Of a DNA stretch of 35,417 nt, positions 8,768-33,949 are shown in pieces. Positions within the stretch are counted from its first letter, which is position 1. Every line of letters starts with the position of its first letter. The notes beneath the pieces were generated by a model. That model was given only the letters and a program-made list of their open reading frames with translations, made no database searches and was not told the origin of the DNA. This DNA comes from an uncultured Lachnospiraceae bacterium (GTDB lineage: Bacteria; Bacillota; Clostridia; Lachnospirales; Lachnospiraceae): contig CAMSTM010000018.1 of NCBI GenBank assembly GCA_947063675.1, forward strand, positions 1 through 35,417, written 5' to 3'. A program made the position numbers and the translations under genes.

Positions 8768-8777
8768 TCCTATCCTC

Positions 8778-10241: not shown

Positions 10242-10256
10242 AACCGTTCCTCCTTC

Positions 10257-11741: not shown

Positions 11742-11755
11742 GGCAGCAAACCTCC

Positions 11756-13249: not shown

Positions 13250-13624
13250 TTACAGCCCCTCCTTTTTCAGCCGGACGGTAATCTCATCCAAATCCAGCGT
13301 GAGGTAACGCTGGTAAAGGCGCACTGTAATAGAGAGCATAAGGGCGCTGACAGATACCGAAACCACAATGCCGGTCAGAACCAGGCCGCTGGGAATCGGA
13401 TTGATGTACGCCTCCATGCTTTGCACGCCGTCCGTCACAATCGGAGCCACCCGTCCGGCAATGTAGCCCTTTTCCGCCAGGAACAGGTAAATTGCCGTAT
13501 CCATGATATTAAGTCCGATAATTTTTTTAATCAGGTTACTTTGAAGCAGCAGATTTCCGAATCCGATTCCAAATAAAATCATTGCCACCGCTTCCCCGTA
13601 ATTATTAAGAAGATTTGCTCCCAC
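13250..13624 (-). CDS. mrpC: Na+/H+ antiporter subunit C (MnhC/MrpC, NuoK-like)
   Basis: Small three-helix membrane protein homologous to NuoK, 124 residues, the normal size for MrpC. Motifs include GIGFGNLLLQSNLIKKIIGLNIMD and the conserved DPIPSGLVLTGIVVS-like stretch (here NPIPSGLVLTGIVVSVSVSA). I place the start at the GTG 13622-13624, one base after the TAA of the upstream gene (13626-13628), because GGAGAGGGGG precedes it at suitable spacing; an upstream in-frame ATG at 13663 would force a 38-bp overlap and add residues not expected in the family. Confidence 0.87.
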   Translation of the reverse strand: MGANLLNNYGEAVAMILFGIGFGNLLLQSNLIKKIIGLNIMDTAIYLFLAEKGYIAGRVAPIVTDGVQSMEAYINPIPSGLVLTGIVVSVSVSALMLSITVRLYQRYLTLDLDEITVRLKKEGL

Positions 13625-13625
13625 T

Positions 13626-14591: not shown

Positions 14592-14917
14592 AGAGCCTCG
14601 CCTCCTTTATCGTCAGGAATCTCCATACTTTCCTCCATGGAAACCATTGTGGTATTTTCCTCGTTTTCCTTATCCTTTTCCGTCTGTATGGCATGTATCT
14701 TTTTCAGGGTGGAGAAAAATAAAATACTGGTCACTCCCGCTCCCACGGCGGCTTCCGTGATGGCAAGGTCGGGCGACTGCAGGCACACCCAGATAACCGA
14801 CATTACCAGACTGTAGGACATAAAAATCAGCACAGAATTCAGAAGGTTCCTGGAAAAACTCACCATTATGGCACACACGATTAAAAATCCCATGAGTATA
14901 CATTGAAACAGCGTCAT
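14588..14917 (-). CDS. MbhD-like subunit (DUF4040 family)
   Basis: 109-residue membrane protein with three hydrophobic helices, corresponding to MbhD of membrane-bound hydrogenases and to part of the MrpA C-terminal region. The diagnostic stretch is SPDLAITEAAVGAGVTSILF, holding a conserved membrane glutamate. C-terminal tail is charged and cytoplasmic. Start at 14917 overlaps the MrpG stop as ATGA, which argues against the longer open frame that begins at 15076. Confidence 0.85.
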   Translation of the reverse strand: MTLFQCILMGFLIVCAIMVSFSRNLLNSVLIFMSYSLVMSVIWVCLQSPDLAITEAAVGAGVTSILFFSTLKKIHAIQTEKDKENEENTTMVSMEESMEIPDDKGGEAL

Positions 14918-15318
14918 AGCTTTCCTCCCGCTTCCGCCTCTTTTTCCTTCTCCGCCTTCAGCTCCTTCTCCAAATCGGAAAGGTCCGAATATCTCTGACA
15001 GTGATTCCCCAGCTTTTCGTTGGTGATAACCTCCAGCTTTGCCAGAAGGTGAGAGGAAACCGGTGAGGCAAACCATAAAAAGATGACTATCAGCATCATT
15101 TTCAGGGTGGTAAAATTAAGGCCTGAAAAAATCATCAGCCCCACCAGGGAAAAGCTGATGCCCAGAGTATCCCCCATGGCCGCGGCGTGCATTCTGTTCA
15201 GTACATAGTGAAGATGAAACACTCCGTACAGCTCAATCAAAAAGATGAGCAACCCGGCAAGGAGAAGCGCTCCTCCTGCAATGAGACGTAACCATTCAAG
15301 AATTTCCATTACCGCCAT
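14914..15318 (-). CDS. mrpG: Na+/H+ antiporter subunit G (MnhG/MrpG)
   Basis: About 134 residues, three hydrophobic segments with the MrpG hallmark HYVLNRMHAAAMGDTLGISF followed by GLMIFSG and FLWFASPVSSHLLAKL. Longer than usual at the C-terminus, with a Lys/Glu-rich tail. ATG 15318 chosen on an AGGAAAGG site just upstream; ATG 15309 is an alternative. It overlaps the end of mrpF by about 20 bp, consistent with translational coupling. Accessory, non-channel subunit of the antiporter complex. Confidence 0.85.
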   Translation of the reverse strand: MAVMEILEWLRLIAGGALLLAGLLIFLIELYGVFHLHYVLNRMHAAAMGDTLGISFSLVGLMIFSGLNFTTLKMMLIVIFLWFASPVSSHLLAKLEVITNEKLGNHCQRYSDLSDLEKELKAEKEKEAEAGGKL

Positions 15319-15667
15319 CCCCTTTCCTGTATCCTGCATTATCATTCTTATGCCGTTTCCGGTAGTTTTCCTCATAAACACCGATATACACCTTGGCCAG
15401 CACATTCACCGCAAGGAAGCTCACCAGAGCGTAAATAAGGCAGATATCCACCAGAAATCCTTCCTTAAGCAAAAGGGCAAGAACGGCAATCATAACCATT
15501 ACCATGGTTCCCATCATATTCACAGCCATAAGCCTGTCCGCCACCCGGGGGCCTTTAACCGCCCGAATCAGACAGACAAACAGCATCAGGGCAAGGATAA
15601 TCAAAACGCCTATGTATAATTTCTGATAAATCGTTTCCAGAACCGTCAGGCTTTCACTTATCTGCAT
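15296..15667 (-). CDS. mrpF: Na+/H+ antiporter subunit F (MnhF/MrpF)
   Basis: Small membrane protein, about 123 residues, with three helices and the family pattern VRAVKGPxxADRLMAVN (here IRAVKGPRVADRLMAVN), then VDICLIYALVSFLAV. The C-terminal 30 residues are hydrophilic. Start at 15667 (MQISES) preferred because GGGGATGGGAAAA precedes it; ATGs at 15676 and 15694 are in frame and cannot be excluded. Overlaps the mrpE stop region by a few bases. Confidence 0.85.
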   Translation of the reverse strand: MQISESLTVLETIYQKLYIGVLIILALMLFVCLIRAVKGPRVADRLMAVNMMGTMVMVMIAVLALLLKEGFLVDICLIYALVSFLAVNVLAKVYIGVYEENYRKRHKNDNAGYRKGDGGNGNS

Positions 15668-16133
15668 TTTTCCCATCCCCTTCCATTTCCTCAAGCAGCT
15701 TTACAAAAACAGAGCTGTTCATTCCCTCCGCAAGGCTTTTATCCAGACAATGAACCTCATACTCGTCATTTTCCAGCATGACCGTAATGGTTCCCGGCGT
15801 AAGCGTGATGGAATTCGCCAGCAGAATCCTCGCCGGCGTGGTCTTCAAATCCGTCTTAAAGCGAACCACGGCGGGCTCAATCTCATATCGCGAGGAGGTA
15901 ATCATTTTAATCACCGCAAAATTTGCCTTGATAATCTCCTTAATCAAAACAAAGACATAATGGAGGATTTGAAACAGCTTTTTCCCCATCTTCAGGTCTG
16001 TTTTCGGGCTGTATCCTAAAAACTTGCAGGTAAACCAGTACATTATCCCTGCGATTACCAGTCCGAAGGCCGCTATTTCCAGTGTTAACTGACCGTTAAA
16101 AATCACCCATATCAGAAAAAATATGATATACAT
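15654..16133 (-). CDS. mrpE: Na+/H+ antiporter subunit E (MnhE/MrpE)
   Basis: 159 residues: two N-terminal hydrophobic helices then a cytoplasmic domain. Family features: LANSITLTPGTITVML, followed by EYEVHCLD, typical of MrpE. GAGGT lies 5 nt ahead of the ATG. First gene of the antiporter operon. The 65 bp between trxA and this gene contain a strong hairpin and no obvious sigma-A promoter, so either a weak promoter lies there or transcription reads through from trxA. Confidence 0.87.
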   Translation of the reverse strand: MYIIFFLIWVIFNGQLTLEIAAFGLVIAGIMYWFTCKFLGYSPKTDLKMGKKLFQILHYVFVLIKEIIKANFAVIKMITSSRYEIEPAVVRFKTDLKTTPARILLANSITLTPGTITVMLENDEYEVHCLDKSLAEGMNSSVFVKLLEEMEGDGKNADK

Positions 16134-19985: not shown

Positions 19986-21734
19986 ATGAAAACGGGAAAC
20001 ATGAAAAAATTCTTATCCTATTACAGGCCCTACAAAAAAATTTTTGCGGCGGATATGTTTTTTGCCTGCCTGGGCGCAGCCGTCACTCTGATTATCCCTT
20101 TGATTATCCGCTATATTACAAACGATGTTATCTACAGACCCGCAGGCGAGTCTTTAAAAATTATCCTGTCTCTCACCGGCATTATGGCGGTTTTAATTAT
20201 TCTGGAATTTTACTGTAATTATTTCATTGCCTATTACGGCCATATCATGGGCGCAAAAATGGAATACAATATGCGGAACGAGATTTTCGCCCACTACCAG
20301 AGGCTTTCCTTCAGCTTTTTTGATAATCAGAAGGTAGGGCAGCTTATGAGCCGCGTCACAAATGATTTGTTTGAAATCAGCGAGCTGTTTCACCACGGCC
20401 CCGAGGATATTGTCATTTCCATTATTAAACTGATTGGCTCCTTTTCCATTCTCCTTTCCATCAACTGGAGGCTGGCACTGGTTGCGTTCGCCATTGTTCC
20501 GGTTATGTTGGTATACGCTTTTTACTTCAATATAAAGATGAAGCGCGCTTTTGTAAAAAACAGGGCCCGGATTGCCGATATCAACGCTCAGATTGAAGAT
20601 AACCTCTCCGGTATCCGGGTGGTGAAATCCTTTGCCAATGAAGAAATGGAAATGGATAAGTTTAAGGTAGGAAACGACCGTTTTGTGGAAAGCAAAAGGG
20701 AAAGCTACCGCTATATGGGTCTTTACCACTCCGGGCTGGGCGCTTTCACTACCTTTATCAGCGTCATTGTGATTGCGGTAGGCGCCGTATTCATCACCAC
20801 AGACCTGATTTCCATTACGGATTTGATTACTTTTCTTCTTTATATTAATAACTTTACCGAGCCCATTAAAAAGCTCATCAACTTTACGGAACAGTTCCAG
20901 AACGGCGCTTCCGGCTACACACGCTTTCTGGAAATTCTGGACATTCACCCCGACATCACAGACCGGGCGGACGCAAGGGAGCTTATGAACGCAAAGGGTG
21001 ATATTACCTTTGAAAACGTGTTTTTTCATTATGAGGAGCACTCCGAAACCGTGCTTTCAAACTTAAATCTTCATGTGAATTCCGGTCAGTACATTGCGCT
21101 GGTGGGAACCTCCGGCGTGGGGAAATCCACGCTCTGCAGCCTGATTCCAAGATTTTACGATGTTTCCTCTGGCCGCATATTAATCGACGGCGAAGATATC
21201 CGGGATTACACCTTAAAAAGCCTTCGGAACAATATCGGTATCGTTCAGCAGGACGTTTACCTCTTTACCGGAAGTGTCATGGATAATATCCGATACGGAA
21301 ATCCCCATGCAACCGACGCGGAAATCGTGGCCGCCGCCCAGAACGCCAACGCCCACGAATTTATTATGAATCTTCCCGAAGGATACGACACCAATATCGG
21401 CCAGAGGGGCGTCAAGCTCTCCGGCGGTCAGAAACAGCGTCTTTCTATCGCCCGGGTTTTCCTGAAAAATCCTCCTATTCTCATTTTTGACGAGGCGACC
21501 TCCGCGTTGGATAATGAAAGTGAAAAGGTGGTACAGGAATCTCTCGAAAAGCTGGCCAAAAACCGCACCACCTTCGTTATTGCCCACAGGCTTTCCACTA
21601 TCCGCAATGCGGAAAAAATACTGGTGCTTTCCGAAAACGGGATTGCGGAGAGCGGAAACCACGAGGAGCTTCTTGCAAAGGGCGGGATTTACGCGGAGCT
21701 TTATAATATGCAGTTTAAGAGTAAGGCGGATTAA
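19986..21734 (+). CDS. ABC exporter, fused permease and ATPase (MsbA/multidrug type)
   Basis: 582-residue half-transporter, working as a homo- or heterodimer in the cytoplasmic membrane. Six helices in the first 300 residues, with NxSGIRVVKSFANEE at the intracellular coupling region; the nucleotide-binding domain has Walker A GTSGVGKS (374-381), Q-loop VQQDVYLF, signature LSGGQKQR, Walker B ILIFDEATSALD and H-loop IAHRLST. All ATPase residues are present. No second half-transporter is adjacent, so homodimer is the simplest reading. Substrate not predictable. Start at 19986 assumed; an ATG at 20001 is also possible, and neither has a strong ribosome site. Its 3' end overlaps the convergent MFS gene by 4 bp. 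Confidence 0.9.
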   Translation: MKTGNMKKFLSYYRPYKKIFAADMFFACLGAAVTLIIPLIIRYITNDVIYRPAGESLKIILSLTGIMAVLIILEFYCNYFIAYYGHIMGAKMEYNMRNEIFAHYQRLSFSFFDNQKVGQLMSRVTNDLFEISELFHHGPEDIVISIIKLIGSFSILLSINWRLALVAFAIVPVMLVYAFYFNIKMKRAFVKNRARIADINAQIEDNLSGIRVVKSFANEEMEMDKFKVGNDRFVESKRESYRYMGLYHSGLGAFTTFISVIVIAVGAVFITTDLISITDLITFLLYINNFTEPIKKLINFTEQFQNGASGYTRFLEILDIHPDITDRADARELMNAKGDITFENVFFHYEEHSETVLSNLNLHVNSGQYIALVGTSGVGKSTLCSLIPRFYDVSSGRILIDGEDIRDYTLKSLRNNIGIVQQDVYLFTGSVMDNIRYGNPHATDAEIVAAAQNANAHEFIMNLPEGYDTNIGQRGVKLSGGQKQRLSIARVFLKNPPILIFDEATSALDNESEKVVQESLEKLAKNRTTFVIAHRLSTIRNAEKILVLSENGIAESGNHEELLAKGGIYAELYNMQFKSKAD

Positions 21735-23008: not shown

Positions 23009-23344
23009 TTATTTATATGTATATTTCTGCTGTCCAGTGAGTATCTTTTTCCAGTTACTTTCCTCACGCAGAACTCTTATAACATGTACTTCTTTTTCTG
23101 CTTCTTTTATAATATAAAAAATTATTGACGGTAAAAACAATTTTTTATGGATAGAATAGTTACGATAATAAATCTGTGTTTTTGCAAACACATTTCCCAT
23201 CACTTTCAAATCTTCTATCTGCTTTCGTATATCTCTTTGAAACTGGTCAGCCCTTTGCTTACCAAATTCCAATTCAATATAATCTGTAATATCTGTTATA
23301 TCATAAATTGCTTCCCAAGTTAAAACCACGTCATACTCTTGCAT
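23009..23344 (-). CDS. Type II toxin, RelE/ParE superfamily
   Basis: 111 residues, the normal toxin size. N-terminal helices (DVVLTWEAIYDITDITDYI), then strands including YRNYSIHKKLFLPSIIFYII and the C-terminal VHVIRVLREESNW, matching the ParE/RelE fold order. ParE-like (gyrase) versus RelE-like (ribosome mRNA) cannot be settled by eye; ParE is favoured. It overlaps the antitoxin gene by 14 bp in the standard antitoxin-first order. Confidence 0.8.
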   Translation of the reverse strand: MQEYDVVLTWEAIYDITDITDYIELEFGKQRADQFQRDIRKQIEDLKVMGNVFAKTQIYYRNYSIHKKLFLPSIIFYIIKEAEKEVHVIRVLREESNWKKILTGQQKYTYK

Positions 23345-23495
23345 TCCTTCTTAAATTCCTTAATTCAGTAATTTTCTCAAACGCTTCATCCAATAACAGT
23401 TCCCGTTCTGCCTCCATATCATCAATTCCTCTGTCAAGCATTCTAAGTAAAGATTTATTATTCTGATTGATATTCATATCTATATCTATTCCCAT
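23331..23495 (-). CDS. Small antitoxin of a RelBE/ParDE-type pair
   Basis: 54 residues, acidic with a C-terminal helix (LLRMLDRGIDDMEAERELLLDEAFEKI) of the sort that wraps a ParE/RelE toxin. No clear DNA-binding domain beyond the short N-terminal strand GIDIDMNINQ, which could be half of a ribbon-helix-helix. Start at 23495 favoured by CGGAG 8 nt upstream; the ATG at 23519 lies closer to the predicted transcription start with poor spacing. Confidence 0.72.
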   Translation of the reverse strand: MGIDIDMNINQNNKSLLRMLDRGIDDMEAERELLLDEAFEKITELRNLRRNARV

Positions 23496-23536
23496 TTGGC
23501 AATCTCCGTTTATTAACATTATTTCTGTTTTTCCTT

Positions 23537-23595: not shown

Positions 23596-24981
23596 TTACT
23601 CAATCCACCTCACCACATCTCCCTTCCCAATCTCCTTATCGGAATAATCAATAATCCTGCTCTCAGCGTCAATCACTCCCGGCTCAAGTGCCACCCAGTT
23701 TTCATTTTCATCCAGAACCTTTACATTAACCTCCTCCACATAATATTCCTCTCCCAGAATACCTTCCCTCTGCCGCAGGACATAGACAAAAGGTCTGTTA
23801 TCCACCGTATAATAAACCGCATGTGGAGAAATACAACATCTGTATTTTTCTCCTCTCTCCACACGCCTTAAAACTCCCGAAAGTCCGGGAATCCACTTTA
23901 CGTTTCCGGAATCTCCGCCCTCTGAAAGACTGATAAGCGTTTCATAGCTTCCGGGCATGGTCTGACTCTCGGAAATATAATCAACTGTCACCTCTATCTC
24001 CTTTCCGCTTCCGTCCAGCTTGACCGTAGCCTCATCTCCATACCCTATATATTTTCTCTGCTCCTTGTCAAATACCACCTTGAACTGGCACGGGATGGTG
24101 TCATCCGTCAGCATCATTGCCGCCGAATCCGGGACTCTGCTGCCTGCCTCCACATAAATGCCTGTAACCATTCCCGCCGTTTTTGCAAAGACAATCCCCT
24201 CCTGACCTAAGACCTCCTGATAGTCGGCCAAATCCGTCTGCAAAAGCCGGATTTCCTCTCTGGCAACTGCAAGAGAGGCGTCCGCATTCTCCGGCAAAAG
24301 GGTGTCCTCCACAGCCCTCTGTGCGTTCTTCATAGCATTGTCCCTCTCCTGCTTCGCGTCCGCCTCTGCATAGGCGGCGCTCTGCAGCGCATCCTTCAGC
24401 CGTTCCCGTTCTTCCTCTCCAAGCCCGTTCATTCTGTCTTCTATTTCCTCATCGCTCAGCCCGTCGGTATCGCCGTAAATGGCGTCCTCCAAATCCTCCA
24501 TAGCCTGGGCGTACTGCTCAGCAGCCCTTCCCACTTCCGTATCCTTTTGTCTGGCGGCCGCATCATAATCCTCTCTTGCTCTCTTTTCGTCCAGCTCCTT
24601 TTTCTGCCTTGCAAGCTCCTGATTTTCCAGAATGGCGTTTATCTGCAGCTGAAGCTTACTGATTTGAGACTGCTTTTCCGCCATGATTTCCCTCAAATCC
24701 TCCAAATCAATCCGAAAAAGCTCGTCTCCTTCCTCCACCCTGTCCCCAATCTGGACAGAAACCGCCGACACCCGAAGGCCGCCAAGGGCATTTACTGCCT
24801 GGCTTCCGCCCTCCACTACAATACCGTCCGCCTCGACGATATGCTCAATGTATTTTTCCTCCGGCGCAGCTGTACTCACCACAGGAAGCTTTGTGGTGTA
24901 GTAGCTTTTCGATATCACAGTGCAAAGCCACATGGCCCCCATAAATATTGCAAAGCCTGCCATTATCTTCTTTTTAAACAT
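23596..24981 (-). CDS. HlyD-type membrane fusion / adaptor protein
   Basis: 461 residues: N-terminal membrane anchor (about 5-25), first half of a lipoyl/beta-barrel region (NALGGLRVSAVSVQIGDRVEEGDELF), a long Glu/Lys/Ala-rich coiled coil (about 85-235), then the second half (GMVTGIYVEAGSRV) and a beta-barrel C-terminal part. Such adaptors link inner-membrane exporters to outer components; in a Gram-positive they often partner MacB-type ABC exporters, but none is nearby. Start at 24981 chosen because AGGAGG is 6 nt upstream. It is the last gene of the operon, 71 bp after the permease gene. Partner unknown; an association with the solute-binding protein is inference from position. Confidence 0.85.
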   Translation of the reverse strand: MFKKKIMAGFAIFMGAMWLCTVISKSYYTTKLPVVSTAAPEEKYIEHIVEADGIVVEGGSQAVNALGGLRVSAVSVQIGDRVEEGDELFRIDLEDLREIMAEKQSQISKLQLQINAILENQELARQKKELDEKRAREDYDAAARQKDTEVGRAAEQYAQAMEDLEDAIYGDTDGLSDEEIEDRMNGLGEEERERLKDALQSAAYAEADAKQERDNAMKNAQRAVEDTLLPENADASLAVAREEIRLLQTDLADYQEVLGQEGIVFAKTAGMVTGIYVEAGSRVPDSAAMMLTDDTIPCQFKVVFDKEQRKYIGYGDEATVKLDGSGKEIEVTVDYISESQTMPGSYETLISLSEGGDSGNVKWIPGLSGVLRRVERGEKYRCCISPHAVYYTVDNRPFVYVLRQREGILGEEYYVEEVNVKVLDENENWVALEPGVIDAESRIIDYSDKEIGKGDVVRWIE

Positions 24982-25052
24982 CCTTCTCCTCCTTCCGCAA
25001 CACCCGGAATGATTAAGACCAGCCAAATATCTGCCGGATATTCTTCGGCTCT

Positions 25053-25946
25053 CTATTCTTTCAAACCTGAATATATAATCCCCTGCTCCAGGTAATCCTG
25101 ACCGAGCACAAACACAAAAGCAGCCGGTATCAAGGTAATGATAGACGCGCAGAAAGCAAAGCCCGCCCGCTCCCAGGTAATTTCCGGCAGGTATAAAGAC
25201 AATGGCCACAGCGACTTGTCGTCCAGAAACGCCATAGGCTGCTCCATCATATTCCAGTACTCCAGAAATCCCAGCACCAGAGCCGACAATATACCGCTTT
25301 TCCCTAAAGGCAATCCGATTTTAAAGAATAAAAACATTTCCGTTGCCCCGTCCACCCTGGCTGCTTCAAATAGCTGCATGGGGATTCCCCGAAAGCCCCC
25401 GTAACACAAAAACACGGGAAAGGTGGAAAACACCACCGGTAAAATAACTGCCGTTTGGGTATTTAACAGAGAAAAACTGTTCAAAACCAGATAACTGGAA
25501 AGCATAGTCACCTGAAAGGGCAGAAGCATCAGTACCACATAAAGGGTAAAAAGCAATTTTCCCAATCGGTTCTGATACACCGCAAAGGACCAGGCCGCAG
25601 GCACTCCGATAAAAAGCTGCCCCGCAAGAATAAGCATCACCATTTTCACGGAATTCCAGAAAAGCACGAAAAACTGCGGCGATAAAAAAAGCAGCTTTCC
25701 ATAATTGGAAAAGGAGGGAAAATCAGGCACCAGCCGCCAGCTGATAAACTGAAAGGCTTCTCCCGCCCCCTTTTCCTGGAAAATCGGTTTGAGAAGCTCC
25801 GCCAGCTCATACTGGTCCATCACCGAACCGGTAATGAGCAAAACCACAGGAAGGGCAACCAGAATCCCCGGCAGGAGGAGAATACTTCCAGATACTCCTC
25901 TTCGTATATTATCCGATATTTTAAAATTGATTTTCTTTCCCTTCAT
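25053..25946 (-). CDS. Carbohydrate-type ABC permease, MalG/UgpE family
   Basis: 297 residues with six membrane helices and the EAA loop FEAARVDGATEMFLFFKIGLP that contacts the ATPase. The N-terminal part (to about residue 75) contains a larger extracellular loop than usual between helix 1 and 2. It begins 7 nt after the stop of the partner permease. No ATP-binding gene follows, so a shared MsiK-type ATPase elsewhere is expected for transport. Confidence 0.9.
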   Translation of the reverse strand: MKGKKINFKISDNIRRGVSGSILLLPGILVALPVVLLITGSVMDQYELAELLKPIFQEKGAGEAFQFISWRLVPDFPSFSNYGKLLFLSPQFFVLFWNSVKMVMLILAGQLFIGVPAAWSFAVYQNRLGKLLFTLYVVLMLLPFQVTMLSSYLVLNSFSLLNTQTAVILPVVFSTFPVFLCYGGFRGIPMQLFEAARVDGATEMFLFFKIGLPLGKSGILSALVLGFLEYWNMMEQPMAFLDDKSLWPLSLYLPEITWERAGFAFCASIITLIPAAFVFVLGQDYLEQGIIYSGLKE

Positions 25947-25953
25947 ATTGCCC

Positions 25954-26817
25954 TCATACTTCCTTATCCCATGCCCTTTGCAGCAGTAAAATCACCAGAA
26001 AAAGAAATCCTCCGGTGCAGACTGCCGCTGCCGCCATCTTGTCAAATTCCAGATTGACGAACCAGTTATTAAACAGGTGCTGCAAAAGATAGATACTCTG
26101 CTCAGGGTACGCGCCAGCCACCAGATAAGCTTCCCTGTAAATCTTAAAGGAATTTAAAAAAGATAAAATCACGATAGTGTAAAGGCTTCCTTTTAAATTG
26201 GGCAGGACAATATACCAGATTCTCTTAAACCCTCCGGCTCCGTCCACCCTGGCCGCGTCAATCAAATCCGTGGAAATTCCCAGAATCCCGGCCAGCCACA
26301 GCACCACCGTATAGCCTGTATTTTTCCAGATATAGCTGCACACCAGCACCCAGAACGCAGCCTCCGTTCCCAGATAATCCGTATGTATCCCGCCCCACAT
26401 CCCTGTCCACTCTCCGATTCCGGTAAGGAACAAATTAAGAAAACCTTCCTTATAAAATGTCATTTTCCACACCATCACAATGGTAGCCGTGGGCATGGCA
26501 AGAGGAAATAAGTAAACAGACTTAATCAGACCGGCATTTTTCAGCTTACTCAAAGGCCAGGCGATTAAAAATCCGATAAACACCAGAAGCGGAATACATA
26601 CAAGGGTAAAGCGCAGGGTATTCTTTACCGCAAGCAAAAAAGCCTGATTACTGAAAATTGTCTGAAAGTTTGCCGCTCCGGTAAAATCTCCTGTCACCGC
26701 CGTGGTAAACGACCTTTTAAATACATCTGAAAACGGAAGAATCACAAAAATGATTACTCCCATAAAGCTGGGAGCCATGAAAAGAAAGAAAGCCCTCCGC
26801 TTTTTACTTTTTCTCAT
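25954..26817 (-). CDS. Carbohydrate-type ABC permease, MalF/UgpA family
   Basis: 287 residues, six helices, EAA motif IDAARVDGAGGFKRIWYIVLPNL. Forms the heterodimeric channel with the downstream MalG-type protein. Ribosome site GGAGGAG close to the ATG. Lies 58 bp after the solute-binding protein gene. Substrate class (sugar-like or other small polyol) is family knowledge only. Confidence 0.9.
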   Translation of the reverse strand: MRKSKKRRAFFLFMAPSFMGVIIFVILPFSDVFKRSFTTAVTGDFTGAANFQTIFSNQAFLLAVKNTLRFTLVCIPLLVFIGFLIAWPLSKLKNAGLIKSVYLFPLAMPTATIVMVWKMTFYKEGFLNLFLTGIGEWTGMWGGIHTDYLGTEAAFWVLVCSYIWKNTGYTVVLWLAGILGISTDLIDAARVDGAGGFKRIWYIVLPNLKGSLYTIVILSFLNSFKIYREAYLVAGAYPEQSIYLLQHLFNNWFVNLEFDKMAAAAVCTGGFLFLVILLLQRAWDKEV

Positions 26818-26875
26818 AAGTCTCCTCCAGACAGGGAGCTGCCAATTCTGACAGCTCCGCCCAAACCTGAATTTT

Positions 26876-29326
26876 CTACTCGGACATATAAATGGCGATA
26901 CTCTGCTCGATTGCGCTTACCGCTTCCTCAAGGCTTTCATTTCCCTTTATATATCCCGCGCCCTCGGCGTACACCGCCTCCTCAATCACGGTATCTTCCA
27001 TATAGGGAGTTTTCACCGCCTCAATCCACCCCTTAAGGGTCTCCATCTGCTCCGGCTCCATTACATAAATCCTGAAACTATAGCTCCGTCCATCGCCTGT
27101 CGATATCCCGAGGGAACTGAAAATTCCCTCCTCGCTGATAAACTTTTCATCTACCTCAAAGCTTTTTTCCAACGCGTCCTTATGGACGGAAAGTCCGTAA
27201 AAGAGCTCCTCCTGGTTTTCCGCTCCCAGAAGCACCTTTATCATCTCCTTCGCCCTGTCGATGCCGGCGGAGGAAGCGTTAATTCCCACAAGAGTCTTTG
27301 GTATAAATACATTTTTATCCATACCTTCCATAGGCTTCATTACATCATCCTCATATCCTTCCACCTTGTTTACGGAAAACTGCTCGCAGACGCTGTGGGG
27401 ATAATAAACCGTACCCATAATAACAGCTCTGTCCTCCATCAGATAGCTGGTCGCGTTGGCCACCCTGAAATAATCCGAGCTCTCTCTTGTTCCGCCATAG
27501 AAAGAAGAATATGTTCCGTTTCTTTCATTGTATTCTGTTATATCTTCTTCCGGTATTCCTTCAATCTCCGCATCATAAATCCTCTTACACTGGGTTAAAA
27601 ACTCCTTAAGCGATTCCTTATCGAGGGAGCCGTCCTCCGTTTTCCAGGAGGGGGACGAAACCATGGAAAACATCCTCATAATGCCTCTCTCTGAGTAAAT
27701 ATTAAGGAGCGCTTTGCCGGGATTATCCTTTCTTAAGGTTTCCATTGCATCGGCGATTCCTTTTAAATCCGTCATTGACGATATATATTTTTCCTTCCCC
27801 ATTACCAGAGGAAGCTGAATTTCACAGGGAATCATATAAATTTTTCCGTCTCTCCTGAAAGCGTCCACAATATTTCCGTAAAGCTCCTGCTCGTCGATAC
27901 AGTCGCTCAAATCCAGGAGAAGATTCTTTTCTATATAGGAATCAACGGGCATATTATCCAGTACCATAACATCCGGTCCCTCTCCGGCCATAATCCGGGT
28001 ATTTAGTTTCTTAAGCGCATCGTCTCTGGTCACGGAGCTTTCGCTTTCTATTCCGACCTCATATTCCACATAAACCTCGGGATTGGCGGTCTGATAGAAA
28101 TTCACGGCCTGCCGCATGGTATCGTTTTCCTTTAGGCTGTATACCTTAAGCCGTTCATTGGGAACCGTGGGAATATCAGGATTGTAGGTAAGACGAACCA
28201 GCTTGTTTCCGGAAAACAGAACAAGAAACTCATTGTCCGGCAGCGCCGTCATTCCTTTAATCAGATTGTTGGGGTTATTAAAGCTGGAGAGACTTCCGTC
28301 AACCACCTGCTCAATAGCGCTGCCCCCGATTACATGGCGGTGCAGCCCCTTGTTTCCTGCCATATAGAGGGAGCCGTCCTCCCCTCCGAAAAAGAACACG
28401 TCAAAACAATCCTGGGTGCTGTAACTCCTTTCCTCATAATTTTCTTTCAGGAAATCGCTTAATACCTCGTCTGTGATATATTCTCCCTTCTCCAAATCGT
28501 AGATAACCACTCCGTTTTTGAAACGGCCTGAGTCTATTACCATAAAATTGCCAGCAAACCGAATCTGCTCAGGCCTCCCTTCCACCGTAAGGAACTTTTC
28601 CCCCATGCCTTCACCGTTCACCTCATAAATGTTGTCTCCGAAAGTGGTTATGAAAACTCTCCCCTTATCCGAAATCCAGATTTTGTAAGGATAACCCTCT
28701 TCCTCGGAAACTTCAATCTGAACGGAAATCTGTGTTCCGTCGGGCTTTACCACAAGGCATTTTTTCTCTGTATCCCAATTGCCAAAGGAATCGTCCTCAC
28801 CGGAATCACTTGTGTCCTTTGCGCCCTCTTCACCGGCTTCTCCTTCATTTTCATCAGACGCATTATCCTTTGGAACAGTGTAAATCATGCCTGCTGTTCC
28901 GTCCGCTCCGTATGCGACGTCCAGAATCGTATATTCATTCTTCCGGGCCTCTGACTGCCACTCCAGGGTTTCTGTGGACCAGCCTGCGCCGTTATCCTCT
29001 GACACTACTCTGCCATAATACGCATCGGGAATAACGATACTGCCGTCAGAGAGTTTTGTAATTCCTTTCGGCATGACGCAGTATTCTCCTATATCCGTGG
29101 AAGTCTCCACATACCGTCCCATGGCGTTACTGCCTTCTGCGTCCTGTGTTTCCCCGCCTTTTTCTCCTTCATTTCCGGCATCCTCTATCCGGCTGCCCTG
29201 TTGTCCGTCCCCTTCTGTTTTTTCCGCCGTTTTCGTCATACTGCATCCTGTGAAAAGAGATGCCGCCATAACCAGTATCATAATAATTGACAGTATTCTT
29301 TTATGGCTTTTCGTTTTATGTAGCAT
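26876..29326 (-). CDS. Extracellular solute-binding lipoprotein with N-terminal propeller-like domain
   Basis: 816 residues, about twice the size of a family 1 solute-binding protein. Lipoprotein signal with LFTGC (Cys28 lipidated). Residues about 60-380 resemble a beta-propeller: repeated short strands with patterns such as LSDGSIVIPDAYYG, ISDKGRVFITTFGDNIYEV, GEDGSLYMAGNKGLHRHV and LPDNEFLVLFSGNKLVRL, plus an acidic disordered insert near 170-195. From about 390 on it is a family 1 solute-binding fold (RQAVNFYQTANPEVYVEYEV, GPDVMVLDNMPVDSYIE, and a typical helical C-terminus). Start at 29326 set by GAGG about 6 nt upstream and the signal peptide. Operon partner of the two permeases. Ligand unknown. 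Confidence 0.85.
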   Translation of the reverse strand: MLHKTKSHKRILSIIMILVMAASLFTGCSMTKTAEKTEGDGQQGSRIEDAGNEGEKGGETQDAEGSNAMGRYVETSTDIGEYCVMPKGITKLSDGSIVIPDAYYGRVVSEDNGAGWSTETLEWQSEARKNEYTILDVAYGADGTAGMIYTVPKDNASDENEGEAGEEGAKDTSDSGEDDSFGNWDTEKKCLVVKPDGTQISVQIEVSEEEGYPYKIWISDKGRVFITTFGDNIYEVNGEGMGEKFLTVEGRPEQIRFAGNFMVIDSGRFKNGVVIYDLEKGEYITDEVLSDFLKENYEERSYSTQDCFDVFFFGGEDGSLYMAGNKGLHRHVIGGSAIEQVVDGSLSSFNNPNNLIKGMTALPDNEFLVLFSGNKLVRLTYNPDIPTVPNERLKVYSLKENDTMRQAVNFYQTANPEVYVEYEVGIESESSVTRDDALKKLNTRIMAGEGPDVMVLDNMPVDSYIEKNLLLDLSDCIDEQELYGNIVDAFRRDGKIYMIPCEIQLPLVMGKEKYISSMTDLKGIADAMETLRKDNPGKALLNIYSERGIMRMFSMVSSPSWKTEDGSLDKESLKEFLTQCKRIYDAEIEGIPEEDITEYNERNGTYSSFYGGTRESSDYFRVANATSYLMEDRAVIMGTVYYPHSVCEQFSVNKVEGYEDDVMKPMEGMDKNVFIPKTLVGINASSAGIDRAKEMIKVLLGAENQEELFYGLSVHKDALEKSFEVDEKFISEEGIFSSLGISTGDGRSYSFRIYVMEPEQMETLKGWIEAVKTPYMEDTVIEEAVYAEGAGYIKGNESLEEAVSAIEQSIAIYMSE

Positions 29327-29348
29327 AGCTTCCTCACCTTTCCTTTTT

Positions 29349-29921
29349 TCAGGTATAAATAAATTCATAGATAAACACCTCGTCCGCCAGGAATTCTTCC
29401 CCTTTGGCATCCATTTTTCCCTTAAACTCCAGCGTCAATTCCTCTTTGATATCTGAAAAAGCGCCTTCCTTTTCCGTAACTTCCTCTCCGGCATTTTTTA
29501 CCGTCCTGATTTTAAATGTCGTGCTTTCCGTAAAATAAACGGTAATCAAGTCTTCCTCTTCTACTCCCTCCCCTACAAAAATTACTGCAACCTGCCCTCC
29601 GTCTTCCACTTCTTCCGTAAAAATTTTACTGACCACCACAAAATTATCCTTTTCGTTAATTTCCTTCACCACTCCCTCAAATGAGTCATCTCCCGCCTGG
29701 GTATTCTGACTTTCCCCGGAATTCTCATTGCCTGAATTGTTATCACCAGTGGCTTCTTTTCCGGCTTCCCCTCTGTTTTCTTCTTCGGCGCTGCCCGCAT
29801 TATCCTCCGGTTCTGTAACCGACTCCACCACGGGCTCAACCAATTGTTCCGTTTTGTTACCGCATCCGCCTGCTGCCAGCAATAAAGCCGTAAGCAGCAG
29901 AGCCGCCTTTTGTTTTCTCAT
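29349..29921 (-). CDS. Small secreted lipoprotein of unknown function
   Basis: 190 residues. Lipobox LAAGGC (Cys20), an acidic Asn/Ser/Gly-rich linker (about 35-80), then a compact beta-rich domain of about 100 residues (FEGVVKEINEKDNFVVVSK to the end) that could be an OB-like or barrel fold; I do not recognise a named family. First gene of the leftward operon, 22 bp ahead of the solute-binding protein. GGAGG is present 10 nt before the ATG. Possibly an extracellular accessory or sensor subunit (inference). Confidence 0.75.
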   Translation of the reverse strand: MRKQKAALLLTALLLAAGGCGNKTEQLVEPVVESVTEPEDNAGSAEEENRGEAGKEATGDNNSGNENSGESQNTQAGDDSFEGVVKEINEKDNFVVVSKIFTEEVEDGGQVAVIFVGEGVEEEDLITVYFTESTTFKIRTVKNAGEEVTEKEGAFSDIKEELTLEFKGKMDAKGEEFLADEVFIYEFIYT

Positions 29922-29986
29922 AAACGTCTTCTCCTCCTTCTTATATCAAATCCGTACAGATATTTCGATACCTGCCGTTTTCCTGT

Positions 29987-29992
29987 AATATA
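29987..29992 (-). promoter_or_regulatory. -10 box of the lipoprotein/transport operon
   Basis: TATATT on the minus strand, followed downstream by the lipoprotein gene (66 nt to the ATG). The expected -35 position (about 30010-30015) is filled by the TTTAGAGA repeats rather than TTGACA, as in activator-dependent promoters. Confidence 0.5.
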
Positions 29993-30001
29993 ACAGCCAA
30001 A

Positions 30002-30019
30002 TCTCTAAATTCTCTCTAA
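30002..30019 (-). promoter_or_regulatory. Operator A: two TTAGAGA half-sites, 11-bp period
   Basis: On the minus strand TTAGAGA occurs at 30013-30019 and 30002-30008, start points 11 bp apart. The pair covers the -35 zone of the leftward promoter. Spacing of about one helical turn with direct orientation is what OmpR/PhoB-type dimers bind. Confidence 0.7.
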
Positions 30020-30049
30020 AACCAAATTCATATAATAAAAAAATAAATC

Positions 30050-30067
30050 TTAGAGATAATTTAGAGA
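30050..30067 (+). promoter_or_regulatory. Operator B: two TTAGAGA half-sites, 11-bp period, facing the regulator gene
   Basis: TTAGAGA at 30050-30056 and 30061-30067 on the plus strand, again 11 bp apart. Mirror image of operator A, 48 bp away, and upstream of a possible -10 for the response regulator (TAGAAT 30088-30093 or TACTAT 30093-30098). Suggests autoregulation. Confidence 0.7.
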
Positions 30068-30125
30068 TTTTTTTTAGAAATCTGTGATAGAATACTATAA
30101 AAATGACTGGAAGAGGATGATTATA

Positions 30126-30809
30126 ATGAGAATTTTACTTGCAGAAGACGACAGAGAATTAAATCAGACCCTTACAATTTCACTGGAACTGGAGGGCTTC
30201 ACCGTTGATTCCTGCTATGACGGCGAAGAAGCCCTTTACTATGGGGAACAAAATATCTACGATGTGATTCTTTTAGACAGGATGCTTCCGCATATGGAAG
30301 GAACTTTAGTTCTCACTAATCTTCGAAAAAAGAAAATTACCACTCCGGTTATTCTCCTCACGGCTCTTGGCACTCTCTCCGATAAGGTGACGGGGCTTGA
30401 TTTGGGCGCCGACGATTATCTGGTAAAACCATTTGCCTTAGAAGAGCTTCTCGCCAGAATACGCTGCGTTACCAGGCGCCCCTCCGCACTGAATAATAAC
30501 GGAGATATTCTTCCCGTTTCCGACGTTATATGGCACATGAACGAAGACCGCCTTGAAGGACCTGCCGGGAGCTGTACCCTCTCCAAACGGGAGGCCTCTC
30601 TTATGGAAACCTTTCTGCGAAGAAAGGGACAGACTCTGTCAAGAAATCTCCTTCTCCTTAAGGTGTGGGGGCCGGACAGCGACGTGGAGGAAGGGAATCT
30701 GGACAATTATATTCATTTCCTGAGACGGCGTCTTAGAGGAACCGGAAGCGCCTTACAGATTAAAACCATCCGGGGAATCGGCTACTGCCTGCAGGATTCG
30801 CCGGACTGA
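30126..30809 (+). CDS. Response regulator, OmpR/PhoB family
   Basis: Receiver domain (about 1-115) with acidic pocket EDD (7-9), phospho-acceptor D51 in VILLDRMLP, and the lysine in LVKPF; then a winged helix DNA-binding domain (about 130-225) with YIHFLRRRLRG and the C-terminal IKTIRGIGYCL hallmark. 227 residues. Start at ATG 30126 (MRILLAEDD) chosen as the receiver domain begins there; AGAGG lies 9 nt upstream. ATG 30117 and GTG 30084 are also in frame. Likely binds operators A and B. The kinase gene follows 79 bp later. Confidence 0.92.
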   Translation: MRILLAEDDRELNQTLTISLELEGFTVDSCYDGEEALYYGEQNIYDVILLDRMLPHMEGTLVLTNLRKKKITTPVILLTALGTLSDKVTGLDLGADDYLVKPFALEELLARIRCVTRRPSALNNNGDILPVSDVIWHMNEDRLEGPAGSCTLSKREASLMETFLRRKGQTLSRNLLLLKVWGPDSDVEEGNLDNYIHFLRRRLRGTGSALQIKTIRGIGYCLQDSPD

Positions 30810-30888
30810 AAAAGCCTCCTGACAACATTCCAAAACCTTGTAATATTCATGAAATGCATGTACAGAATATTCCGGCGTGGAGGTCATC

Positions 30889-32202
30889 ATGTATAAAAAA
30901 GTGCACTTGCAGCTAACCTGCCTGTTTACGGGAATCACCGCGGCGATTATGATTATCATGTCCCTGTGTTATCTGTATGTATCAGAAAGCGGACTTTTCA
31001 GAAATCAGTATAACTCCTTCAAAAACGATATGAACACCATCGCCACCAATTTAGAGCAAATGCCTGTTATTTCCATGCAATGGCTCTCCAAAATGGAGGC
31101 GCAGGGTAATTATACCTTTTTTGCCCTGGACAATGGCGTTCCCTTTCTCTATAACCAGCTTAGCGGACATTCTGATGATTCCAGAAAAACAATTATGAAG
31201 GAATGTCTGGATGCCTATCATAATACCTTTAAAGCAACAGCTGCAAATGCCGTATCTTCTCCTTATGTGTCCTATCATGTGGAATATCAGTTTACATCGC
31301 CTTCCACAAAAGAAAAATACTTTGGATGCGTCATTTCCATAGAAAAAGGGAAATCCATGATGCAGGTTATTGTCTTTTCCCCGCTGAACATGCTGGAAAA
31401 GCAAATCTCGGAACAGCGTTTCCGCTTTTTTCTGATTGACTTAACCGCCATTATACTTCTCGCTGCCTTTTCATTCATTTTTACGGGAAAGCTCTTGCAG
31501 CCCATTTCCGAAAGCCAGCAAAGACAGGCCCGTTTCATTTCCTCTGCCTCCCACGAGCTCAGGACGCCTCTGGCCATTATTTTGTCTTCCATTGACTGCT
31601 GCCGGAATTCAGAAGATGGCAATCAGCAAAGCGCAGCGCAGCAGAGATTCCTTAAAACAATCCGGCAGGAAAGTCTTCGCATGTCCTCCTTAATCAACGA
31701 TATGCTAATCTTATCCGAGCAGGACCAGCATCTTCCTGTCCGCAAAAAAAATGTGGAATTAGATACCCTGATTATCAATTCTTATGAAGCCTTCGAGCCC
31801 CTTGCAAAGGAAAAGCAGATTACGCTTTCCGTTGAACTGCCGGAAAACATTCTTCCTCCATGCAGCTGCGACCCCGACCGCATCAGCCAGGTGATTTCCA
31901 TCTTGCTGCATAATGCCGTCAGCTATACCCAAAAACACGGAAAAATAATCCTTTCCCTCTCTTACGGCAAAATGGGCTTCCTTCTTTCAGTGAAAGACAA
32001 CGGGATTGGTATTTCCGATGAGGATAAAGGGAAGATATTTGACCGGTTTTATCGAGCGGAAAAATCCCGAAGCACCAGGGGGCACTTCGGGCTGGGATTG
32101 TCAATTGCTTACGAAATCGTTACTTCCCATAACGGAAGTATTACCGTGAAGGATGCGGTACCGAAAGGAGCCGAGTTTGTGGTTGTACTGCCGGAAAAGT
32201 GA
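30889..32202 (+). CDS. Membrane sensor histidine kinase
   Basis: 437 residues. Two membrane helices (about 9-31 and 181-200) enclose an extracellular sensor of about 150 residues of no type I recognise; no clear HAMP linker, the second helix runs straight into a short link and the H-box. Phospho-acceptor H222 in SSASHELRTPLAI, N-box HNAVSYT (341-347), G1 DNGIG (370-374), F-box FDRFYRAE, G2 GLGLSIAYEIV. Start at 30889 chosen on GGAGG 5 nt upstream. Pairs with the response regulator just before it. Confidence 0.92.
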   Translation: MYKKVHLQLTCLFTGITAAIMIIMSLCYLYVSESGLFRNQYNSFKNDMNTIATNLEQMPVISMQWLSKMEAQGNYTFFALDNGVPFLYNQLSGHSDDSRKTIMKECLDAYHNTFKATAANAVSSPYVSYHVEYQFTSPSTKEKYFGCVISIEKGKSMMQVIVFSPLNMLEKQISEQRFRFFLIDLTAIILLAAFSFIFTGKLLQPISESQQRQARFISSASHELRTPLAIILSSIDCCRNSEDGNQQSAAQQRFLKTIRQESLRMSSLINDMLILSEQDQHLPVRKKNVELDTLIINSYEAFEPLAKEKQITLSVELPENILPPCSCDPDRISQVISILLHNAVSYTQKHGKIILSLSYGKMGFLLSVKDNGIGISDEDKGKIFDRFYRAEKSRSTRGHFGLGLSIAYEIVTSHNGSITVKDAVPKGAEFVVVLPEK

Positions 32203-32275: not shown

Positions 32276-33949
32276 ATGAAGCCCATTATTTCAATCGGCA
32301 ATCAGGATTTTAAGACTATCAGGGAAAATAACTATTTCTACATAGATAAAACCGCATTTATTAAGGAATGGTGGAACAGCGGAGATGTAGTTACATTAAT
32401 TACACGCCCGCGCCGCTTTGGGAAGACCCTGAATATGTGTATGACCGAGCAGTTTTTTTCCAATCAATTTGCCGGTTCCGGTAATTTATTTGAAGGCCTT
32501 TCTATCTGGAATGATGATATATTTCGTAAATTACAGGGAACTTATCCCGTAATATCTCTGAGTTTTGCATCTGTTAAGGGAAAAAACTGTCAGGAAGCAA
32601 TTGAAGGGATTAAGCAGGTCATTATAGATTTATATGTCCGTTTTGATTTTTTACGCCAGGATAACACTTTAAATCAAAGGGAAAAAGAATATTTTGATTA
32701 TATAAATGCAGACATGTCGGATACAATTGCTGCAATGTCGTTGCACAGGCTGGCGCTTTGCATGAATCATTATTATGGAAAAAGGGTTCTGATTTTTCTC
32801 GATGAATATGATACCCCTTTATTGGAGGCATATATAAACGGCTACTGGGAGGAACTGGTTTGTTTTATACGCGGATTATTTAATTCAACGTTCAAAACCA
32901 ATCCTTACCTTGAACGCGGGCTTTTGACGGGAATTACAAGAATCAGTAAAGAATCCATTTTTTCCGACCTGAACAATCTGGAAATCGTAACCACAACTTC
33001 TCATAAATATGAAACATCTTTCGGTTTTACAGAAGAAGAAGTGGCAGCTGCGCTGGATAGCTTTCAACTATCCGACCAGATAAAAAAAGTGAAAGGGTGG
33101 TATAACGGATTCCATTTCGGAGAAAGAAAAGATATTTATAATCCCTGGTCTATTACAAAATATCTGGATACCGAAAAATTCGGGAACTATTGGGTAAATA
33201 CAAGCGCAAATTCCCTTGTTGGAAAATTAATACAGGAGGGTTCCCCTGATATTAAAACTGCAATGGAAGACCTCTTGTCTGGCAGACAAATTGAAACCTT
33301 TCTGGATGAAGAAATCATTTTCAGCCATTTGAATGAAAACGACTCGTCCATTTGGAGCCTGCTTCTTGCTTCCGGATACTTAAAGGCTGATACCTTACCG
33401 GAAGAGGAAGGCGATGTTTACCATTTATCCCTTACCAATTATGAAATTCAAAATATGTTCCGTAAAATGATTCTGGATTGGTTTAGCAAATCATCTACTA
33501 AATACAATGATTTTATAAAAGCTTTGCTGACCGACGACATCCTATATATGAACCGTTTTATGAATCAAATGACATCATCTGTTTTCGGCTTTTTTGATAC
33601 AGGCACGCATCCATCAGCACAGGAGCCGGAAAGATTTTATCATGGTTTTGTGCTTGGATTAATTGCGGATTCCAAAATAGATTATATCATTACATCAAAC
33701 AGAGAAAGCGGCTTCGGCCGATATGATGTAATTATGGAGCCTAAAAACCCTTCTGATAACGCTTATGTTTTTGAATTTAAAGTACATGACCCGGACTATG
33801 AAAAAACACTGGAAGATACGGTAAAAAAAGCTCTTTCTCAAATTGATGAAAAGAATTATGATGCCCTTTTGATTTCAAGGGGAATTCCAAAGGAAAAAAT
33901 TCGTCATTATGGTTTTGCCTTTAAAGGTAAAAAAGTTCTTATTGGCTGA
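32276..33949 (+). CDS. AAA-ATPase-like / PD-(D/E)XK nuclease family protein (AAA-ATPase_like + PDDEXK_9 type)
   Basis: 557 residues. N-terminal ATPase-like domain with Walker-A-type loop RPRRFGKT (44-51) and a candidate Walker B LIFLDEYDTPLLEA; C-terminal nuclease-like domain with D484, E500-F-K502 (RYDVIMEPK ... VFEFKV), the PD-(D/E)XK arrangement. A large paralogous family in gut anaerobes, function unproved; roles in defence or mobile DNA have been guessed, not shown. The coding sequence is visibly more AT-rich than its neighbours, which fits acquisition by transfer. Start supported by AAAGG 9 nt upstream. Alone, not in an operon. Confidence 0.85.
   Translation: MKPIISIGNQDFKTIRENNYFYIDKTAFIKEWWNSGDVVTLITRPRRFGKTLNMCMTEQFFSNQFAGSGNLFEGLSIWNDDIFRKLQGTYPVISLSFASVKGKNCQEAIEGIKQVIIDLYVRFDFLRQDNTLNQREKEYFDYINADMSDTIAAMSLHRLALCMNHYYGKRVLIFLDEYDTPLLEAYINGYWEELVCFIRGLFNSTFKTNPYLERGLLTGITRISKESIFSDLNNLEIVTTTSHKYETSFGFTEEEVAAALDSFQLSDQIKKVKGWYNGFHFGERKDIYNPWSITKYLDTEKFGNYWVNTSANSLVGKLIQEGSPDIKTAMEDLLSGRQIETFLDEEIIFSHLNENDSSIWSLLLASGYLKADTLPEEEGDVYHLSLTNYEIQNMFRKMILDWFSKSSTKYNDFIKALLTDDILYMNRFMNQMTSSVFGFFDTGTHPSAQEPERFYHGFVLGLIADSKIDYIITSNRESGFGRYDVIMEPKNPSDNAYVFEFKVHDPDYEKTLEDTVKKALSQIDEKNYDALLISRGIPKEKIRHYGFAFKGKKVLIG

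What the first reader, a model, noticed from the sequence alone, without database searches (positions are those of the whole stretch)
23596..32202. A two-component system joined to a transport/sensing operon with an unusual gene set
Seen: lipoprotein, propeller plus solute-binding lipoprotein, MalF- and MalG-type permeases and an HlyD adaptor in one leftward run, divergent from an OmpR-type regulator and a histidine kinase. Importer permeases beside an export-type adaptor, all under an envelope-style two-component system, is not a standard sugar operon. Inference: one signalling unit in which the binding protein and permeases may serve sensing or envelope traffic rather than simple uptake.
Basis: partly seen in the sequence, partly recalled or inferred. 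Interest (0 to 1): 0.75.

Follow-up and report, generated by a model that had tools for sequence, protein, structure and literature searches.

The report
Sugar-importer genes joined to export adaptor
In this gut bacterium and many relatives, the membrane genes of a sugar-type uptake pump are inherited together with an adaptor protein otherwise known from export pumps, and here the set appears to be switched on by its own sensor pair through a DNA signal that we could identify.

Summary
It is a conserved unit. HlyD stands with the permeases in 80 of 80 named loci. Searching from MalF instead, HlyD is near at 90 of 96 places in the family sample; 5 misses are contig ends, 1 a real split. Five generic sugar-importer loci lack it. 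The regulator's probable site, TCTCTAA-N4-TCTCTAA, precedes the operon in 29 of 30 loci with a neighbouring regulator, stays with it when other genes intervene, and is absent from 13 of 13 paralogous loci with BlaI-type genes. Distant relatives, and a third copy in the own genome, add a MacB/YknZ-like gene after HlyD; some relatives, most of them in other families, also have a UgpC-type ATPase in the operon. The window's operon looks like a reduced branch of a hybrid importer/MacAB-like system for which I found no description. Assembly, direction and substrate are untested.

The parts
29349..29921 (-). small lipoprotein (LP family), first gene of the leftward operon
   Evidence: ORF with lipobox-like N terminus; no Pfam family, no NCBIfam family over its cut-off; homologues lie behind the same DNA box elsewhere
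26876..29326 (-). lipoprotein with N-terminal probable propeller and C-terminal CUT1-type solute-binding domain
   Evidence: SBP_bac_8 1.2e-10 at residues 426-709; profile vs PDB best CbpC 8e-17; weak BNR/propeller signals
25954..26817 (-). MalF-type permease
   Evidence: BPD_transp_1 1.8e-11; EAA-loop residues conserved in 77 aligned sequences
25053..25946 (-). MalG-type permease
   Evidence: BPD_transp_1 1.1e-11; EAA-loop residues conserved in 80 aligned sequences
23596..24981 (-). HlyD/MacA-type adaptor with one N-terminal membrane helix
   Evidence: HlyD_3 1.5e-7; profile vs PDB ZneB 2.5e-10, EmrA 1.1e-5; AlphaFold2 model pLDDT 83.9, pTM 0.45, helix 2-30, long helices 93-169 and 189-228, strands on both sides
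30126..30809 (+). OmpR-type response regulator
   Evidence: Response_reg 5.1e-27, Trans_reg_C 3.6e-17
30889..32202 (+). histidine kinase with two hydrophobic stretches and about 140 residues between them
   Evidence: HisKA 1.4e-15, HATPase_c 6.8e-25; hydropathy segments 5-37 and 176-207
30002..30019 (+). predicted regulator box TCTCTAAATTCTCTCTAA, about 80 bp before the lipoprotein start
   Evidence: exact match; conserved before the operon in 29 of 30 loci with a neighbouring regulator
30050..30067 (-). second predicted box, facing the regulator gene
   Evidence: exact match; with the first box it forms 21-nt arms, 95% complementary

Best explanation
The operon encodes an ABC importer of the CUT1 (MalFG/UgpAE) kind whose permease pair is fixed to an extracytoplasmic HlyD/MacA-type adaptor. 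A membrane-anchored propeller/solute-binding lipoprotein feeds it, and a UgpC/MsmK-type ATPase encoded elsewhere drives it. In the wider system a MacB/YknZ-like protein is a further part, which is missing from the operon in this branch (loss is my reading). Expression is controlled by the divergent OmpR-type pair, which binds TCTCTAA-N4-TCTCTAA boxes in front of the operon and, in the window, of its own gene. The regulon probably also includes more lipoproteins of the same family and a C39-like membrane-anchored peptidase. Shown here: gene set, conservation, box, the genes behind boxes, and a MacB-like gene and UgpC-type ATPase in relatives. Inferred: that the regulator binds the box; that permeases, adaptor and (elsewhere) MacB-like protein form one complex; that transport is inward; that the substrate is an oligosaccharide, peptide or glycopeptide of the envelope zone.
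For: HlyD beside at least one permease in 80 of 80 named loci, beside both in 78 (L060 and L077 begin inside the run). MalF-led family search: 96 places; HlyD within 7 kb in 52, beside it in 16 of 17 and 22 of 27 of the rest. Generic CUT1 loci L307 and L310-L313: 0 of 5 with HlyD or MacB. EAA loops conserved. MacB-like gene next to HlyD in 44 of 59 MalF-set loci (17 of them built the profile) and 8 of 17 other family loci; MacB_PCD above the Pfam cut-off in 5 of 7 tested; PDB best matches MacB 4.6e-14, and YknZ 6.5e-8. UgpC-type ATPase in the operon in L259/L260 (466 and 460 bits, cut-off 432) and by profile in L292, L293, L300, L304, L305. One OB_MalK ATPase at about 1e-16 in each of 4 same-genus genomes searched; in the two neighbourhoods listed (G008, G022) I saw no permease gene. 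Box: 98 sites with at most 1 mismatch in 1.485 Mb of 80 loci, against 1 in one Markov shuffle and a mean of 0.8 for 40 scrambled half-sites; 60 exact repeats at period 11, 3 at all other periods from 8 to 30.
Against: No binding, co-transcription or transport data. The MacB-like gene was found in 0 of 80 named loci of this branch, so it is not needed there. In the own genome the only OB_MalK match (2.6e-6, over Pfam's cut-off) lies beside its own permease genes on C113, and no ATPase reaches the UgpC cut-off (best 338 of 432 bits); the assembly is incomplete. The solved chains nearest to the adaptor come from efflux systems, so export is not excluded. The propeller was not modelled. One MalF place (L263) has no MalG or HlyD beside it; MalG-HlyD-MacB lie on another contig of the same genome (L291). 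Genome-wide the box is less clean: in the own genome 5 sites with at most one mismatch against 5 for the reversed control pattern; exact sites in 37 genus genomes 33 against 7. Boxes were found in only 28 of 77 more distant loci.
Confidence: 0.55

Rival explanations
1. Detoxification or exporter-type machine: HlyD (with the MacB-like protein where present) moves an antimicrobial peptide or other compound away from the membrane, as proposed for YknXYZ, and the MalFG/binding-protein half is a capture or co-sensing part.
For: Adaptor and MacB-like parts resemble efflux adaptors and MacB/YknZ. Regulators are of types often tied to envelope or antibiotic stress (recalled): OmpR-type pair here, BlaI/BlaR1-type in the paralogous clade. 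A C39-like peptidase gene lies behind the same box. A review (PMC5985334, passages read) says many Gram-positive adaptor genes are in operons with macB homologues and that YknXYZ protects against a peptide toxin.
Against: The ATPase found in relatives' operons is UgpC type; permeases keep importer EAA loops and sit beside a solute-binding protein; the MacB-like gene is missing in this branch (0 of 80).
Confidence: 0.25
2. Two machines in one regulon: an ordinary sugar importer and an HlyD adaptor that serves a different exporter, for example the neighbouring half-size ABC exporter at 19986-21734.
For: That exporter gene lies convergent to the operon in the window and in 5 of 13 same-genus type-A loci (L031, L032, L039, L042, L043).
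Against: It was not found in the held flank of the other 8 (in L033 and L037 the contig ends at HlyD, so they cannot tell) nor, apart from fragments of 28-33% identity in two, in the paralogous loci, whereas HlyD stays with MalG across families. Five generic CUT1 loci have no HlyD.
Confidence: 0.15
3. Ordinary CUT1 sugar operon; the HlyD gene is a passenger.
For: MalFG, binding protein and a shared ATPase are standard parts.
Against: HlyD near 90 of 96 MalF places, 5 of 6 misses being contig ends, and in other families too.
Confidence: 0.05

Closest known systems
CUT1 (MalFGK/UgpABCE-type, MsmX/MsmK-energised) ABC importers
   Same: MalF/MalG-type permeases with EAA loops, solute-binding lipoprotein, UgpC-type ATPase encoded elsewhere (same-genus genomes) or in the operon of relatives
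   Different: fixed HlyD adaptor; MacB-like protein in many relatives; OmpR-type or BlaI/BlaR1-type genes beside it; binding protein fused to a probable propeller, in up to four copies
MacAB / YknXYZ-type adaptor plus MacB permease systems of Gram-positives
   Same: HlyD/MacA-type adaptor followed, in relatives, by a MacB_PCD protein without its own ATPase domain (PMC5985334 passages, describe YknZ as homologous to the MacB transmembrane and periplasmic part and YknY as the separate ATPase)
   Different: where an ATPase gene was recognised in the operon it is UgpC type; MalFG permeases and a binding protein are added; the MacB-like gene is absent in the window's branch
BceRS-BceAB-type ABC transporter/two-component modules (features recalled; BceABS is in a table of the review seen)
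   Same: transporter genes beside an OmpR-type pair
   Different: kinase has a large loop between its hydrophobic segments; the transporter is MalFG/HlyD, not BceAB

Membership tests
CUT1 ABC importer | two BPD_transp_1 permeases with EAA loops | tested here: met
CUT1 ABC importer | solute-binding lipoprotein of SBP_bac_1/8 type | tested here: met
   (SBP_bac_8 in 46 of 52 homologues)
CUT1 ABC importer | UgpC/MalK-type ATPase with OB_MalK domain, own or shared | tested here: inconclusive
   present in 4 of 4 same-genus genomes searched and in operons of relatives; in the own incomplete assembly only one OB_MalK match, beside its own permeases, and none over the UgpC cut-off
CUT1 ABC importer | ATP-driven uptake of a sugar | not testable with these tools
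   needs experiment
MacAB/YknXYZ-type system | MacA/HlyD-type adaptor | tested here: met
MacAB/YknXYZ-type system | MacB_PCD permease next to the adaptor | tested here: not met
   not in the window and next to HlyD in 0 of 80 named loci; present in 44 of 59 MalF-set loci and in the own genome's third copy
MacAB/YknXYZ-type system | MacB/YknY-type ATPase | tested here: not met
   none encoded in the window run; ATPase tested in two relatives' operons is UgpC type
BceRS-BceAB module | kinase without extracytoplasmic sensing domain (recalled) | tested here: not met
   about 140 residues between two hydrophobic stretches
BceRS-BceAB module | BceB-type permease | tested here: not met
   permeases are BPD_transp_1

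The most novel reading that the evidence does not exclude
A so far undescribed class of hybrid ABC transporter in the window's phylum: a MalFG importer core driven by a UgpC-type ATPase that carries a MacA-type adaptor and a MacB/YknZ-like subunit on its outer face, fed by membrane-anchored propeller/binding lipoproteins. Lachnospiraceae have diversified it, including absence of the MacB-like part and exchange of regulators (OmpR-type pair with a TCTCTAA-N4-TCTCTAA box, or BlaI/BlaR1-type).
Probability: 0.4. Interest if true: 0.85.

Novelty: new variant of a known kind. Interest (0 to 1): 0.72.

Why it matters
Import and export ABC systems are usually treated as separate kinds with separate accessory parts; adaptors of the MacA/HlyD type belong, in the review passages I saw, to exporters or MacB-type systems. 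A lineage in which an importer permease pair is inherited together with such an adaptor, and often with a MacB-like protein and sometimes the importer's own ATPase, would ask for a new transport architecture. The identified box makes the regulation directly testable and gives a handle on the inducing signal and so on the substrate.

Tried and rejected
Passenger HlyD: rejected, HlyD being near 90 of 96 MalF places (5 of 6 misses are contig ends). Neighbouring half-size ABC exporter as HlyD's partner: found in 5 of 13 type-A loci. BlaI operator of the recalled TACA-N-TGTA type: not found before BlaI in any of 13 loci; an element TGTGATAGTC is shared by 11 of 13, function unknown. UgpC-type ATPase in the own genome: none over the cut-off. 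Literature: 10 searches, judged from their listings, showed no description of a MalFG-HlyD(-MacB) system in the open library; most subscription papers are not covered. Of the papers listed I opened passages of one (PMC5985334).
Full report
Observation. The window holds, leftward from 29921 to 23596, a small lipoprotein, an 816-aa lipoprotein with a solute-binding C-terminal half, MalF- and MalG-type permeases and an HlyD-type adaptor, and rightward from 30126 to 32202 an OmpR-type regulator and a histidine kinase. Start sites are corrected in the observation check. There is no ATPase gene in the run. The own genome has 106 BPD_transp_1 matches, so permease genes as such are common there.

Conservation in the genus. 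A search of 40 genomes (the own one included) with the adaptor found 25 with a match at E <= 0.001, weak ones included. I fetched 28 stretches and compared them with the window's proteins. L031-L043 (13 loci) all carry SBP, MalF, MalG, HlyD and the divergent regulator-kinase pair; the small lipoprotein was recognised in 9 of 13. A second copy of the four-gene core, also in the window's own genome (C10, L047), lacks the pair. In the five such loci whose neighbours I listed (L044, L047, L048, L051, L055), a BlaI-type repressor and a BlaR1-type peptidase gene precede it, as read from their sequences; for L047 Pfam gives Penicillinase_R 1.9e-26 and Peptidase_M56 1.5e-39.

Conservation in named records. 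HlyD is beside at least one of the permeases in 80 of 80 and beside both in 78; L060 and L077 begin inside the run. By profile, 52 loci have one binding-protein gene on the strand of the operon, 14 two, 5 three, 1 four and 8 none in the held stretch. A regulator homologue of over 60% identity lies divergently in 30 of 80; regulator plus kinase by profile in 28; a BlaI homologue in 13. The nearest relative listed, 95% identical in HlyD, is Bacterium 1xD8-48; Parablautia intestinalis and Lachnospiraceae bacterium 10-1 also carry the unit.

Independent test from the permease. To avoid choosing loci by HlyD, I searched 397 family genomes with a MalF alignment: 82 genomes matched at E <= 1e-60, 96 places as counted. 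The earlier HlyD search (46 of 397 genomes at E <= 1e-20) has a hit within 7 kb of 52 of these places. Of the other 44, 17 were fetched (16 with HlyD beside the permeases, L257 a contig end) and 27 (22 with HlyD, some at low scores; contig ends in L271, L273, L280, L281; a real split in L263). Total 90 of 96. The other way round, three HlyD pieces in two genomes had no MalF hit near: L290 holds HlyD and MacB-like only, and L291 MalG, HlyD and MacB-like. In the phylum sample, 6 of 398 genomes, the own one included, matched the MalF profile; all five others were fetched and have HlyD beside or near the permeases (L258-L261, L292, L293). With the MalF of one distant member as query, 21 of 398 genomes matched at 1e-50. 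Of 15 weaker places in other genomes (E 1e-50 to 1e-56) I fetched 6: five (L307, L310-L313) have neither HlyD nor a MacB-like gene in the held stretch, and L306 is cut by its contig. They serve as the control for generic sugar-importer permeases.

An extra part in relatives. Right after HlyD, 18 of 18 distant loci that I read closely (L243-L256, L259-L262) have a homologous gene of 194-480 codons. Pfam MacB_PCD is above cut-off in 5 of 7 tested, and the profile's best solved matches are MacB (4.6e-14), with YknZ at 6.5e-8. By profile the gene is next to HlyD in 44 of 59 loci of the MalF set, of which 17 built the profile; in 8 of 17 loci of the family HlyD set; and in 0 of 80 named loci. A UgpC/MalK-type ATPase gene follows in the same stretch and strand in L259, L260, L292, L293 (other families), L300 (same family as the window), L304 and L305 (another family) (the profile was built from the L233, L259 and L260 ATPases, and L259 and L260 pass the NCBIfam UgpC cut-off on their own). 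In L301 one lies some kilobases away. In L305 the MalG, HlyD, MacB-like and ATPase frames, stop to stop, abut or overlap by a few bases. The window's own genome has a third, divergent copy at C37: SBP, MalF, MalG, a 675-aa HlyD, MacB-like, SBP (L303); the same arrangement is in L308 and L309, and in L314 apart from an unrecognised gene in the first SBP's place; no regulator pair was recognised in these four stretches nor in L304 and L305. In L258, from another family of the class, the order is SBP, SBP, HlyD, MacB-like, MalF, MalG. A MalF+MalG tree of 147 loci groups 84 MacB-less loci, L059 among them (node support only 0.25), and has 11 changes of the MacB state in all, some at contig ends; the 13 BlaI-type loci fall in one 21-tip group with support 1.0 that also holds L075, L079 and L088, which carry the box, and five loci in which no BlaI gene, regulator or box was found (one, L085, has a BlaR1-type piece). 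The tree suggests that regulators were exchanged; I do not rest more on it.

Energy. EAA-loop residues are conserved in MalF (77 sequences) and MalG (80). In 4 of 4 same-genus genomes one ATPase with a strong OB_MalK domain was found, besides weaker ones in three. In the two listed neighbourhoods (L233, L234) I saw no permease gene. In the own assembly the only OB_MalK match is an ATPase beside two permease matches on C113, and none reaches the UgpC cut-off. That shared ATPases drive several type I importers is reported for MsmX-like proteins (PMC7658222, seen as search listing and start of abstract).

The DNA box. Between the two divergent promoters lie TCTCTAAATTCTCTCTAA (30002-30019, +) and its counterpart (30050-30067, -), with 21-nt arms 95% complementary. 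In the 30 named loci with a neighbouring regulator a site with at most one mismatch precedes the operon in 29; L073 has a two-mismatch site. In 17 of the 30 other ORFs lie between regulator and operon, and in 17 of 17 the box is with the operon. Of the 50 loci without a regulator in the held stretch, 25 have a site, and none of the 13 with BlaI has one. Over all 80 loci (1.485 Mb) there are 98 sites with at most one mismatch; one first-order Markov shuffle gave 1, 40 scrambled half-sites gave a mean of 0.8 and at most 5, and exact half-site repeats occur 60 times at period 11 and 3 times at all other periods from 8 to 30. Genome-wide the contrast is smaller: in the own genome 5 sites with at most one mismatch against 5 for the reversed pattern, 4 exact against 1. 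In 77 more distant loci at least one site is found in 28. In 37 genomes of the genus, 20 have exact sites, 33 in all, against 7 for the reversed pattern. Genes behind the 33: regulator 2, lipoprotein family 18, binding protein 4, C39-like peptidase 6, no ORF found 2, not fetched 1. The six peptidases are homologous, 52-99% identical, and the own-genome one matches Peptidase_C39_2 at 8e-18.

Mechanism. See Best explanation and the rivals. The regulatory part (the pair acts on this operon through the box) I hold at about 0.95, the shared-complex part at about 0.5, and inward transport at about 0.6. The adaptor model shows one N-terminal helix, strand-rich parts and long helices between them, as expected for this family (recalled), but no structural search could be run.

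Known or new. Importers with MalFG and UgpC, and MacA/YknX-type adaptors with MacB/YknZ, are both known kinds. I found no paper describing their stable combination; the searches are listed in Tried and rejected. I therefore call the finding a new variant of a known kind, with the hybrid-transporter class as the bolder reading.

Noticed in passing
window 23009-23344 (-): ParE-type toxin gene (PF05016 2.1e-9); the stretch just upstream (23336-23500), read in one frame only, has several stops, so the partner antitoxin was not identified.
   Followed up: partly
window 32276-33949 (+): AAA-ATPase_like plus PDDEXK_9 protein next to the kinase; homologues or fragments also lie in the stretches of the paralogous loci L049, L050, L054 and L056.
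   Followed up: no
window 6596-16133 (-): A long leftward run of genes that look like a multi-subunit Mrp/Mnh-type cation/proton antiporter cluster (read from the translations and recall; no family search made).
   Followed up: no
L171:431-1408 (-) and relatives in L197, L199, L211, L213, L220: Membrane-anchored C39-like peptidase behind the same regulator box, a probable second target of the regulon.
   Followed up: partly
L044, L047, L048, L051, L055; named loci L081-L083, L086, L089, L093, L099-L101, L104, L107, L109, L135: Paralogous operon copy preceded by BlaI/BlaR1-type genes; the M56 protein of L047 keeps an HELIH motif and shows no penicillin-binding domain in Pfam; TGTGATAGTC is shared before BlaI in 11 of 13 named loci.
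   Followed up: partly
L043:6102-6765: The MalG-type gene of this same-genus genome is found in two overlapping pieces in different frames, so it may be broken or misassembled there.
   Followed up: no
L303 (own genome C37:1-16000): A third, divergent copy of the system with a 675-aa HlyD, a MacB-like gene and two binding-protein genes.
   Followed up: yes
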